Part shown: positions 9,316-19,609 of the stretch, in pieces
Layout: each line of letters begins with the position of its first letter
How positions within the stretch are numbered: the first letter of the stretch is position 1
The notes under the pieces: model-generated
The model's input: only the letters and a program-made list of their open reading frames with translations
Told to the model about the DNA's origin: nothing
The model's database searches: none
Source of the DNA: Anatilimnocola floriformis
GTDB lineage: Bacteria; Planctomycetota; Planctomycetia; Pirellulales; Pirellulaceae
Direction of reading: 5' to 3'
Length of the DNA: 64,000 nt
Assembly (NCBI RefSeq): GCF_024256385.1
Contig: NZ_JAMLFW010000001.1
Location: 1,178,001-1,242,000, forward strand
Program-made: the position numbers and the translations under genes

Positions 9316-9927
9316 ATGAAATCCAGCAACTCGCGTCCCCCGTTCAACCAACCGCCAACGGTCATGCCGCGGTTGATTCGCCTGGTAATCGGCTTGGTGA
9401 TCATGTTGGTGGGGATGTACCTCGCCTGGCAGAAGGCGCAGAACCAGCCGCCGCAGCAACCCGACGATTCGGTGCCGGTGGTGATTGCGCCGGAAGTGAA
9501 GTTGCCGCCAGACGAGTGGCAGAATGAGCCGTCAACTTCGCCCGTGAAAGAGAAGACCGCGCCGGAGGAACGCCCGCCGAGCGTGCGCGCGGAGACAGAG
9601 CGGGCTGTTAAATCGCAGATAAAAAACGCCAAGATTCGGAATCAGGACGGCCGTGTTGTTTTCGAAGGCACCATCGACCTGCGCGACACGCTCGCGCGCA
9701 TCGAGCGGGGCCAGCGCGGCAGCCATGCCAACGACGGCACGGTTTTTCAAAACCGCGAGAAGCGACTGCCGCAGAAGCCGAGCGGCTACTATCACGAATG
9801 GGTTCACCCCACGCCCAATCAGCGCGGCCCCGGTCCGCAGCGAGTCGTGACCGGCGAGAACGGCGAGATCTATTACACGCCCGATCACTACAAGACGTTT
9901 GAACGGCTGGACCAAAAGCAGAAGTGA
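9316..9927 (+). CDS. Membrane-anchored barnase-type ribonuclease
   Basis: A 203-residue protein with an N-terminal hydrophobic segment (about residues 20-42, IRLVIGLVIMLVGMYLAW), a polar Pro/Glu linker, and a C-terminal microbial guanyl-RNase domain. Landmarks are FQNREKRLP and YTPDHYKTF. The barnase catalytic set can be placed on E161, R170, R176 and H191, corresponding to barnase E73, R83, R87 and H102, so activity is expected. The segment is followed by QKAQNQPPQQ with no obvious cleavage site, so the enzyme may stay anchored on the outer face of the membrane. The next gene encodes its barstar-like inhibitor, 16 bases downstream. The start at 9316 is preferred to upstream codons because it gives the anchor at the right depth. 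Confidence 0.88.
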   Translation: MKSSNSRPPFNQPPTVMPRLIRLVIGLVIMLVGMYLAWQKAQNQPPQQPDDSVPVVIAPEVKLPPDEWQNEPSTSPVKEKTAPEERPPSVRAETERAVKSQIKNAKIRNQDGRVVFEGTIDLRDTLARIERGQRGSHANDGTVFQNREKRLPQKPSGYYHEWVHPTPNQRGPGPQRVVTGENGEIYYTPDHYKTFERLDQKQK

Positions 9928-17099: not shown

Positions 17100-17263
17100 A
17101 TCGGCTGTTTGTGCGGAAGGTGGAGGCAATCCAATACTGTAACGAAAACAGCCGCCGATTGCTCCAAAAAGTCACCCTTCCCAGCCGTAAACGACGAATG
17201 GAGCCAGAAAATTGCGGCCGCGGGGCTTCCTCGGCAGTAGCGCGATTCGATGGCTATGTCCGC

Positions 17264-17292
17264 TGGGCAATGCGGGGCTGGCTGCCTACAAT
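17264..17292 (+). promoter_or_regulatory. Candidate sigma-70-type promoter of tRNA-Lys
   Basis: TGGGCA at 17264-17269 and TACAAT at 17287-17292 are separated by exactly 17 bases and lie 39 bases before the mature tRNA 5' end. Four of six -35 bases and five of six -10 bases match consensus. The position is right for a tRNA promoter. Confidence 0.6.
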
Positions 17293-17331
17293 GTGGGACT
17301 CAATTGGAGAAGCAATTCACCAGTTGTGGTC

Positions 17332-17404
17332 GAGACCGTAGCTCAGTTGGTAGAGCACGGCACTTTTAATGCTGGGGTCGCGGGTTCGAGTCCCGCCGGT
17401 CTCA
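17332..17404 (+). tRNA. tRNA-Lys, anticodon UUU
   Basis: The 73-base sequence folds into a full cloverleaf. The acceptor GAGACCG pairs with CGGTCTC and the discriminator is A. The D-arm is GCTC...GAGC with AGTTGGTA. The anticodon stem CGGCA/TGCTG holds loop CTTTTAA, anticodon TTT. The T-arm is GCGGG-TTCGAGT-CCCGC. CCA is not encoded. The 3' half, from within the anticodon loop on, is repeated exactly at 17843. Confidence 0.97.
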
Positions 17405-17416
17405 TTTCAAACCCCT
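17362..17416. repeat. 55-bp direct repeat, copy 1 (tRNA-Lys 3' half, attL-like)
   Basis: These 55 bases run from the anticodon stem/loop of tRNA-Lys through the tRNA end and 12 bases beyond. An identical copy is at 17843-17897, 481 bases away. This is the signature of an integration at a tRNA 3' end, where the incoming element restores the tRNA and the displaced 3' end marks the other border. Confidence 0.9.
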
Positions 17417-17842
17417 TAGTTAGCACAACTTGCGAGCCTTCCGAATCGGCGGTCGGCTCCGGTTGTTTGGAAGTGTTACCTGTTTTGTGACTTTCTTGGA
17501 GGTTCAACTCATCATGGCTGACACGCAAACGAGGTTACGCGCGGTGATTGTTCATGGCGATGGCACCGTCACTACCGCAGTTGGCGGAAACAGAACAGGG
17601 TATAACCTGGACGACGCTATTCAGAAGGGCGCAAGGATCATTCAGATTACACCGATTGGGACTGGCACTTCGATTATGCTTCTTGTTGAAGAGCCGAAGA
17701 GCTAATCTTTTCAGCAGTGTTACTTGGAATGTTACTTCAGTCGATCATTCCACCTGAATTGTAGCAAATGCTCCTTAGAGACTATCGCGGTGTTTTTCAA
17801 TAACGGGACAACTTCGGGAAACCTTCGGAACAACTCGTTCTG
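17417..17842. mobile_element. Possible 426-bp mini integrative element in tRNA-Lys
   Basis: The stretch between the two 55-bp repeats carries one small ORF and no integrase. By eye it is less G+C-rich than the flanks. The tRNA terminator-like hairpin now lies beyond the second repeat, as expected if a segment had been inserted between the tRNA and its terminator. It may be a non-autonomous satellite, the remnant of a larger island deleted internally, or the product of an unequal local duplication. These alternatives cannot be separated from one sequence. Confidence 0.5.
17514..17705 (+). CDS. 63-residue protein inside the tRNA-Lys repeat pair
   Basis: The ATG at 17514 has a strong TTGGAGG about ten bases upstream, so the start is well supported. 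The product reads as a compact beta-rich protein: LRAVIVHGDGTVTTAVGG, then NLDDAIQKGARIIQITPIG, then TSIMLLVEEP. It has no signal peptide, membrane segment or recognised motif. It is the only plausible gene between the repeats and could be the cargo or a regulator of the element. Family unknown. Confidence 0.6.
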   Translation: MADTQTRLRAVIVHGDGTVTTAVGGNRTGYNLDDAIQKGARIIQITPIGTGTSIMLLVEEPKS

Positions 17843-17897
17843 ACTTTTAATGCTGGGGTCGCGGGTTCGAGTCCCGCCGGTCTCATTTCAAACCCCT
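17843..17897. repeat. 55-bp direct repeat, copy 2 (attR-like)
   Basis: An exact copy of 17362-17416. It lacks the 5' half of the tRNA (no acceptor 5' strand, no D-arm), so it is not a second tRNA gene. Confidence 0.9.
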
Positions 17898-17913
17898 GTG
17901 GTTCCAACACCTG

Positions 17914-17950
17914 GCGAGTCTGGCGAATTTATCGCCGGCTCGCTTTTTTT
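17914..17950 (+). terminator. Intrinsic terminator
   Basis: GCGAGTCTGGCGA pairs with TCGCCGGCTCGC (one imperfection) around a short A/T loop and is followed by seven T at 17944-17950. It is oriented to stop rightward transcription from tRNA-Lys and the mini-element. Confidence 0.8.
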
Positions 17951-17983
17951 GTGGCTTGCTGGGTTGGCTGCGAACCAGGTTGC

Positions 17984-19609
17984 TCATTCTTGAGCGGGTG
18001 GCGGAGGATTTCCGATGCGCACGAGTCGCAAGGATGCGGCGTCGAACCAGGCACGGCCACCACTGGCGCGCAACTCCAGCACGAGTTGCACGTGGCGCTG
18101 ATCTTCGCGAATGGTGAACTCCTCCGTGAGCGGTTTCCAGGCATTCGTGCCGCGGAGGTGGTTCGTTCGTTCCACGCCCGAGATCCCCGCACCAGCGCCG
18201 CCACTTTCGTTGCCATCTGGACTAATTACGCGGTTGGTGCGGACCAGCGCGCGGAGTTCGTACTTGCCGGGACCAAGCAGCACGTCGCGCCGCCAGGAAG
18301 CGACGCAGGGCACTGTTTTGCCGCAAGCGATGGAATAGGTCTCTTTTCGTTCGAGCTTGGGACGCTCGAGCTTGGCATCTTCTGTCTCTAGCTGTTCGTA
18401 CCAGTCGGGGAGCAACTCTTCGCTTTTTTTGTTGGCGAACGCCAGCACTTCGGGATCTGGCTCGGCAAGTTGTGCTCTCAAGTTTTCTGCCCGCGCGACC
18501 AGACGCTCTTTGTATTCCTTGACGCGCTCCACATGCTCGCTGGCGGCCTCCTTGCCGATCGCTTCTAAGGCGGGCTTCAAGCGCTTTTGAATCTCATCCA
18601 CGCGGCGGATCAGGCCATCGGCGGGTGAGAACAGCGGCAACAACTTGGCGACTCGTTCGCGGTAGCGCTGTCGCCATTCGTTGTTCTGCATGACGGCTGC
18701 AGAGATCATGGGCTTGGTGTGATCGAAGAGACCCATGCCTGGATCGCCGAACATCTGATCCATGCCATGCGGAAAGAAGCAGGCCTTGCTGGTGGTGGGA
18801 TCGAAGTAGACCCGATAGTTGTTCATGTTGTTGGCGTAGCCGTCCCAGTGGCAGGTCATCCGTTCGAGCGCCATGAACGTGAGAAACGCATCGATGTCGA
18901 CGAGCGTCGCCAGTTTTCGCCAGCGCGCGGCAGGATCCTCCACAGCCAAAGCCTCGGTGATGGCTCGCAAATCGCTGTGATCGACCGGACCCGCCCCGGC
19001 GTCTTTTTCTAGATCGGCATCGAGATCTTGCAGAAAGCCGCCGTCGTAGAGATTGCCCGTCGGGTCGGCGAAATGCCGTTTGAGAAAGCGCTCGTCGAAA
19101 CCTTCTTTCAGTACATACAAGCCGACATCGCGACCGTTGAGCCAGACGCGAGCATGCGTAACTCGCGCCGCAGGAACTCCGGCCTGGCGAAACAGCTCCG
19201 AGCAAATCAACTCGCTGAGATACGAGTCATCTTGCACGGAGTTGTTCAGATGGAATTTTACGAGCTCGTGAAATTTGCCTTGCTTGTTGAACTTCGTCAT
19301 GTTCAACGTCAGTGCCGGCCGGTCATCCCAGTCGCGATAGCTGCCGGCTGCCCCTTTGAGCTTGAGAGCGACTCCCTGGTACTTCGTTTGGCCGTTCTCT
19401 TCGAGCGCAGCCTTTACATACGACCTCGGCTCGGCTTGTAGTTTGTCGAGATCCTTCTTCTCCACGGTGATTCGCAGTTGCGGGATTTCACTCTGCTGGA
19501 AGAACGTGTCGCTCGCGTCACTGACGCGCGGTGGCGCGGCTTGAGCTGTTGCGCCCGCTACCAGCGAGAGAGACAACAACCCAGCGACCAGGGCCCAGCC
19601 AGTATTCAT
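17984..19609 (-). CDS. Exported CotH-kinase-family protein
   Basis: The 541-residue protein starts at the ATG at 19609, followed by a signal peptide (WALVAGLLSLSLVAGATAQA). Motifs of the CotH family are visible: VKLK-like GVALKLKGAAGSYRD, FHLNNSVQDDSYLSE, VYVLKEG-like VGLYVLKEGFDERFL, and HWDGYANNMNNYRVYFDP...FFPHGMDQMF. In known CotH proteins the equivalent segments bind ATP and Mg. The last 150 residues form a separate beta-rich domain (YELRALVRTNR...VQLVLELRASGGRAWFDAASL) like a carbohydrate-binding module. It lies 32 bases downstream of the DUF1570 gene, in the same transcript. Substrate unknown. Confidence 0.85.
   Translation of the reverse strand: MNTGWALVAGLLSLSLVAGATAQAAPPRVSDASDTFFQQSEIPQLRITVEKKDLDKLQAEPRSYVKAALEENGQTKYQGVALKLKGAAGSYRDWDDRPALTLNMTKFNKQGKFHELVKFHLNNSVQDDSYLSELICSELFRQAGVPAARVTHARVWLNGRDVGLYVLKEGFDERFLKRHFADPTGNLYDGGFLQDLDADLEKDAGAGPVDHSDLRAITEALAVEDPAARWRKLATLVDIDAFLTFMALERMTCHWDGYANNMNNYRVYFDPTTSKACFFPHGMDQMFGDPGMGLFDHTKPMISAAVMQNNEWRQRYRERVAKLLPLFSPADGLIRRVDEIQKRLKPALEAIGKEAASEHVERVKEYKERLVARAENLRAQLAEPDPEVLAFANKKSEELLPDWYEQLETEDAKLERPKLERKETYSIACGKTVPCVASWRRDVLLGPGKYELRALVRTNRVISPDGNESGGAGAGISGVERTNHLRGTNAWKPLTEEFTIREDQRHVQLVLELRASGGRAWFDAASLRLVRIGNPPPPAQE

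What the first reader, a model, noticed from the sequence alone, without database searches (positions are those of the whole stretch)
17332..17950. tRNA-Lys with a perfect 55-bp repeat of its 3' half enclosing a one-gene mini-element
The 3' half of tRNA-Lys(UUU), plus 12 bases after it, occurs again without a mismatch 481 bases downstream (17362-17416 and 17843-17897). Between them is a single 63-residue ORF with a strong ribosome-binding site, and the T-run terminator is beyond the second copy. This is the border signature of a tRNA-targeted integrative element, but it is only 426 bp and has no integrase. It would be a satellite mobilised in trans, an internally deleted island, or an unusual duplication. 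The ORF family is unrecognised.
Basis: partly seen in the sequence, partly recalled or inferred. Interest (0 to 1): 0.78.

Follow-up and report, generated by a model that had tools for sequence, protein, structure and literature searches.

The report
Integrase-less one-gene element in tRNA-Lys
A 481-base piece of foreign DNA, one small gene plus a complete integrase docking site but no integrase of its own, sits in a planctomycete-type lysine tRNA gene; it is best read as the stripped-down remnant of a larger genomic island that could still be moved if a matching integrase arrived.

Summary
In detail: tRNA-Lys(UUU) at 17332-17404, and an exact 55-bp repeat of its 3' half (17362-17416, 17843-17897) around a 426-bp spacer with one 63-aa ORF. 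The sister species of the same genus has the identical tRNA in the same synteny with no insert: an empty site. The repeat starts at the anticodon loop, and in other genomes of the order half copies of tRNA-Lys start at the same place, including an intact 7.8-kb integrase-bearing island. The new evidence is that the spacer holds two pairs of TGTKACYT direct repeats, 12 bp apart within each pair and 105 and 107 bp from the two crossover points. This is the layout of integrase arm-type sites, and the intact tRNA-Lys island has the same layout (with different letters). The insert is therefore a complete ~257-bp attP plus one gene, without integrase: a decayed, CIME-like element, smaller than classical CIMEs but keeping a gene, unlike microCIMEs. 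The ORF has no detectable relative anywhere searched. Deletion remnant (favoured) and genuine trans-mobilised mini-element are not separated by the data. Local duplication is rejected. Similar integrase-less short inserts occur at tRNA-Cys and tRNA-Arg of the sister species.

The parts
17264..17292 (+). sigma-70-like promoter of tRNA-Lys (TGGGCA-17-TACAAT), the only promoter-like site found in 17200-18050
   Evidence: consensus match only
17332..17404 (+). complete tRNA-Lys(UUU): 5' part host, 3' part from the anticodon loop on supplied by the element (attL)
   Evidence: ARAGORN; Rfam RF00005 74.4 bits; identical 73/73 in sister genome G001
17362..17416 (+). copy 1 of the 55-bp core repeat (attL), starting at A31/anticodon loop
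17434..17459 (+). degenerate hairpin homologous to the native terminator, no T-run (element-borne copy)
17474..17493 (+). left arm-type doublet TGTTACCT-N4-TGTGACTT, 105 bp from the anticodon loop
17498..17502 (+). GGAGG ribosome-binding site, 11 nt before ATG, 4 nt after the left arm
   Evidence: sequence
17514..17705 (+). 63-aa ORF, no relatives found; predicted beta-beta-alpha-beta-beta
17718..17737 (+). right arm-type doublet TGTTACTT-N4-TGTTACTT, 107 bp from the second anticodon loop, 12 nt after the ORF stop
17843..17897 (+). copy 2 of the core repeat (attR): displaced 3' half of the original host tRNA-Lys
17913..17951 (+). native intrinsic terminator of tRNA-Lys, displaced 481 bp downstream

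Best explanation
A tyrosine integrase once recombined a circular element into the anticodon-loop segment of tRNA-Lys(UUU). Integration rebuilt the tRNA with an element-borne 3' half (attL) and pushed the original 3' half and terminator to the right (attR). What remains today is 481 bp: a complete attP (55-bp core plus a pair of arm-type sites on each side, about 257 bp when circular) and one gene snugly between the arms. The integrase and everything else are missing, most likely by internal deletion of a larger tRNA-Lys island like the 7.8-kb one in G058. It would work like a cis-mobilizable element (CIME): passive in this genome, but able to be excised or carried along if an integrase that recognises tRNA-Lys and these arms arrives. 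The ORF is probably expressed, if at all, by read-through from the tRNA-Lys promoter. Shown: anatomy, empty site, recurrence of the attachment site, arm pairs and their spacing. Inferred: integrase catalysis, origin by deletion, residual mobility, read-through expression.
For: Empty site in the same genus, with the SDR gene upstream and downstream genes syntenic. Joining the flanks restores an intact tRNA-Lys next to a strong terminator. Half copies in G055 (two), G011 and G097 all start at CTTTTAA or a few bases before it. G058 has a complete island: tRNA-Lys, integrase ORF running into the tRNA, resolvase-like and primase-like ORFs and a 54-bp perfect repeat 7803 bp away. Arm doublets in the window score 30 of 32, against 0 of 200 shuffles and 0 of 1500 genomic segment pairs; the exact pattern is absent from the other sequence fetched and has chance expectation 0.00 in the window. 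The two distances are 105 and 107 bp. G058 has the same arrangement, GCGCCAAG-N4-ACGCCAAG at both ends, and G055 has GTGAAGCTTTTT doublets. Integrase-bearing tRNA islands of this genome carry 11-12-bp-spaced doublets next to the tRNA. Pairs of imperfect direct-repeat arm sites on both sides of a core that starts at a tRNA anticodon loop are described for Cluster J mycobacteriophages (PMC3706429). Low G+C spacer.
Against: No larger parent island with these arms or this ORF was found in any genome searched, so the deletion is inferred rather than seen. The ORF lies tightly between the arms with its own RBS, which a random deletion need not give. No integrase of this genome sits at another tRNA-Lys half copy, so a cognate enzyme is not identified. 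The arms are a statistical finding without binding data.
Confidence: 0.68

Rival explanations
1. It is a genuine miniature non-autonomous element (attP plus one cargo or regulatory gene) that arrived at this size and is mobilised in trans by the integrase of other tRNA-Lys elements, as MITEs use transposases.
For: Both arm pairs are complete and nearly symmetric around the core, RBS and stop fit between them to within 4 and 12 nt; the 55-bp repeat is still perfect; integrase-less short inserts also occur at tRNA-Cys (1018 bp, two small ORFs) and tRNA-Arg (53 bp x 3) of the sister species.
Against: No second copy of the unit or the ORF in this genome, the sister genome, the several hundred further genomes of the phylum searched, or phage, plasmid and viral collections; the other short inserts share neither sequence nor clear arm doublets with it.
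Confidence: 0.24
2. Old local duplication of the tRNA 3' half and terminator, with the ORF region in between by chance.
For: Homology extends past 55 bp into the terminator region.
Against: The sister species has no duplicate; the copies are not adjacent; the border falls at the anticodon loop as in other islands; low G+C and arm doublets in the spacer.
Confidence: 0.03
3. It is a current or former integron-type cassette or a transposon (MITE).
For: Single gene, compact unit.
Against: No inverted repeats of 8 bp or more within the spacer, no unusual fold after the ORF (z -0.46), and 55-bp tRNA repeats rather than a short target duplication.
Confidence: 0.02
4. Assembly artefact.
For: None; only that repeats can be mis-assembled.
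Against: The unit lies inside a 6.25-Mb contig of a 17-contig genome of 99.5% completeness; the spacer is unique sequence with structured arms.
Confidence: 0.02

Closest known systems
CIME (cis-mobilizable element) and microCIME, as described for streptococci
   Same: Flanked by attL and attR at the 3' part of a target gene; no integrase or transfer genes; derived by deletion (PMC7563491, PMC5704250). CIMEs at tRNA-Lys(CTT) are common in S. agalactiae (cited in PMC7563491).
   Different: 481-bp unit with one gene: below the reported 1.2-13 kb of classical CIMEs, above the gene-less 130-220 bp microCIMEs; not in tandem with an ICE/IME; the parent could equally be a phage or satellite; not Firmicutes.
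tRNA-targeted genomic islands with tyrosine integrase (Islander type)
   Same: Complete tRNA plus displaced 3' fragment marking both ends.
   Different: No integrase, and under the 2-kb limit; the Islander filters reject such pairs (PMC4383910).
attP of Cluster J mycobacteriophages (tRNA-Leu)
   Same: Core starts in the anticodon loop; a pair of arm-type imperfect direct repeats on each side (PMC3706429).
   Different: Different arm sequence and tRNA; here no integrase and no phage genes.
7.8-kb tRNA-Lys island of G058 (found here, L146)
   Same: Same tRNA, core from the anticodon stem-loop on, 54-bp repeat, doublets with 12-bp spacing at both ends.
   Different: Carries integrase, resolvase-like, primase-like and other genes; arm letters differ (CGCCAAG).

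Membership tests
CIME (cis-mobilizable element) | attL and attR retained | tested here: met
   55-bp exact repeats, arm pairs on both sides
CIME (cis-mobilizable element) | no recombination or transfer genes | tested here: met
   only one 63-aa ORF, no family match; no integrase in the 481 bp
CIME (cis-mobilizable element) | derived from an ICE or IME by deletion | tested here: inconclusive
   no longer relative with these ends found
CIME (cis-mobilizable element) | moves by accretion with an incoming element | not testable with these tools
   needs mating or excision assays
microCIME | 130-220 bp, no gene | tested here: not met
   481-bp unit with an ORF
tRNA-targeted genomic island | complete tRNA and displaced 3' fragment at the ends, empty site in relatives | tested here: met
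tRNA-targeted genomic island | encodes a tyrosine integrase | tested here: not met
   none between the repeats; none of the 28 PF00589 hits lies at this locus
Integron gene cassette | attC hairpin after the gene | tested here: not met
   17703-17842 folds no better than shuffles, z -0.46
MITE / transposon | terminal inverted repeats | tested here: not met
   no inverted repeats of 8 bp or more in the spacer

The most novel reading that the evidence does not exclude
A class of sub-1-kb 'attP plus one gene' elements lives in the tRNA genes of these bacteria, moved in trans by the integrases of larger islands and expressing the gene from the tRNA promoter by read-through; island finders miss the class because they demand an integrase and at least 2 kb.
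Probability: 0.2. Interest if true: 0.72.

Novelty: new variant of a known kind. Interest (0 to 1): 0.5.

Why it matters
It is about the smallest anatomically complete integrative element one can draw: core, both arm pairs, one gene. If it can be moved in trans, genomes hold a hidden layer of tiny integrative elements that standard tools discard by design. If it is a remnant, it still shows that decay can stop with a complete, reusable attP, so that single genes stay on call for the next integrase. The arm-pair rule (12-bp doublets at about 100 bp) gives a simple, testable signature for finding more.

Tried and rejected
ORF relatives: own genome, 199 family, 392 phylum and 397 order genomes, GTDB contigs, IMG/VR, phages, plasmids, Pfam, PHROGs, NCBIfam; only weak chance-like hits inside long unrelated frames. 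DUF4177 (a lead from memory on the fold): no member in this genome and no Pfam hit. Foldseek against PDB and viral models: nothing significant. The exact tRNA 3' half was not found in GTDB contigs or viral contigs. Similarity of the spacer ends to ends of other islands: none. An excisionase role for the ORF was considered because of its size and place by attP; no homology and no winged-helix prediction, so not claimed. Arm doublets in the sister's tRNA-Cys insert: not significant (33 of 200 shuffles as good).

Full report
OBSERVATION. The window (C1:1178001-1242000 of an 8.93-Mb, 17-contig genome) has one tRNA, tRNA-Lys(UUU) at 17332-17404. Its 3' half plus 12 bases recurs exactly 481 bp downstream. 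Between the copies are 426 bp at 48% G+C, in flanks of about 60%, with one ORF of 63 codons and a GGAGG 11 nt before the ATG. The strong terminator follows copy 2 (17913-17951, z -3.2), while copy 1 is followed by a weak hairpin without T-run. Beyond the 55 bp the two copies stay related (2 of 2000 shuffles as good), so the element carried its own, now diverged, copy of the tRNA-Lys 3' end and terminator.

EMPTY SITE. The only same-genus genome drawn (G001, 9.0 Mb, one contig) has the same tRNA-Lys, 73 of 73 identical, in the same neighbourhood: the SDR gene upstream at 74% identity and further syntenic genes downstream. Its terminator comes directly after the tRNA and there is no second copy. 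Joining the window's flanks gives an intact tRNA-Lys with the strong terminator behind it. Copy 2 is no longer needed as tRNA, yet it has no change in 55 positions (upper bound about 5% by the rule of three), against about 26% divergence in the neighbouring gene between the two species; the insertion is recent.

RECURRENT SITE. Half copies of tRNA-Lys occur in other genomes of the order: two in G055, and in G011 and G097. All start at the anticodon loop CTTTTAA or a few bases before it. In G058 the locus is a complete island: tRNA-Lys, a tyrosine integrase whose reading frame runs into the tRNA, a resolvase-like protein, a primase-like protein, an excisionase-like small protein (these three names are my reading of the sequences), and a 54-bp perfect repeat 7803 bp away. 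The window's genome has at least eight tRNA genes with a tyrosine integrase next to them, but no other copy of the tRNA-Lys half.

ARM SITES. The spacer holds TGTTACCT-N4-TGTGACTT at 17474 and TGTTACTT-N4-TGTTACTT at 17718. A joint score for two equally spaced doublets is 30 of 32; none of 200 shuffles and none of 1500 real segment pairs of the same sizes from the two genomes reached it. The degenerate pattern occurs in no other fetched locus and has chance expectation 0.00 in the window. The doublets lie 105 bp and 107 bp from the two anticodon loops. G058 has GCGCCAAG-N4-ACGCCAAG at both ends (0 of 200 shuffles), and G055 has GTGAAGCTTTTT repeats at 12 bp. Next to integrase-bearing tRNAs of this genome, exact 11-12-bp doublets within 160 bp are found in 3 of 8, against 5 of 149 other tRNAs. 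Published Cluster J mycobacteriophage attP sites have the same plan: a core starting in a tRNA anticodon loop and a pair of arm-type direct repeats on either side (PMC3706429). The insert is thus attP (125 + 55 + 77 = 257 bp when circular) plus one gene.

THE ORF. No relative was found in any collection. A single-sequence AlphaFold2 model gives beta-beta-alpha-beta-beta with pLDDT 78.5 and pTM 0.62; an overlapping wrong-frame ORF as control gives one helix, 64.4 and 0.32. Codon usage in its frame beats the other frames and 98.4% of shuffles. These favour a real protein without naming it. No fold match is significant. The only promoter-like site nearby is that of the tRNA, so read-through is the likely way of expression; this is inference.

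HOW COMMON. Among 75 tRNA predictions in the fetched flanks of this genome only tRNA-Lys has such a near half copy (a few predictions are counted twice where loci overlap). Among 69 in the sister genome there are two integrase-less cases: tRNA-Cys with a 1018-bp unit, two small ORFs and a 49-nt 98% repeat that also starts at the anticodon stem, and tRNA-Arg(CCT) with a 53-bp unit three times in tandem. The tRNA-Cys insert shares no sequence with the window's element.

VERDICT. The anatomy is that of an integrase-less integrative element. The closest named class is the CIME: classical CIMEs of 1.2-13 kb carry genes and microCIMEs of 130-220 bp carry none (PMC7563491). This one falls in between, in a different kind of bacterium and with an unknown parent, so I call it CIME-like and do not file it as a CIME. 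Islander requires an integrase and at least 2 kb (PMC4383910), so such elements are filtered out by design. Deletion remnant is favoured on parsimony; a true trans-mobilised mini-element is not excluded.

LIMITS. No strain-level comparison, no cognate integrase identified, no binding or excision data. The arm test was designed after seeing the repeats by eye, so its significance is somewhat optimistic, though the G058 island was an independent confirmation.

Noticed in passing
L168:8957-10049 (G001:C1, tRNA-Cys): Sister species: tRNA-Cys(GCA) with a 49-nt, 98% repeat of its 3' half 1018 bp away, two small ORFs (68 and 65 aa), terminators after both copies, no integrase. A second integrase-less mini-insert starting at the anticodon stem.
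   Followed up: partly
L172:9845-10003 (G001:C1, tRNA-Arg CCT): The 3' half of tRNA-Arg(CCT) is repeated in tandem, 53-bp unit, three copies including the gene; the last copy has a different acceptor strand. Looks like stacked attachment sites without cargo.
   Followed up: no
L168:9414-9477 and 9711-9774; matches across G000 and G001: The two small ORFs of the tRNA-Cys insert share a 64-bp leader that ends at the start codon; the second ORF (..LLLLQVLYVGSYLALVQPEG..) belongs to a dispersed family with about 20-28 DNA matches in each genome.
   Followed up: no
L127:8891-10932 (G000:C1:4042890-4045030) and L139: Tight arrays of tRNA genes (about 17 in 2 kb, including a second tRNA-Lys(UUU)), probably carried by a mobile element; a similar array lies just beyond attR in G058 (L146:10567-11652).
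   Followed up: no
L146:2450-10337: Complete 7.8-kb tRNA-Lys island with integrase, resolvase-like, primase-like, excisionase-like and possibly terminase-small-subunit-like ORFs; resembles a phage satellite.
   Followed up: partly
L021:1000-1163 (G043, tRNA-Arg TCT): 32-bp exact repeat of the tRNA 3' end 61 bp downstream: a still smaller integrase-less scar, with the border in the T arm.
   Followed up: no
L058:9899-10150 (G011) and L145:3795-4124 (G097): The same 210-bp element end plus tRNA-Lys half copy lies next to tRNA-Lys terminator sequence in G097 (with an RHS-repeat gene) but next to unrelated sequence in G011; suggests rearrangement at the attachment site.
   Followed up: no
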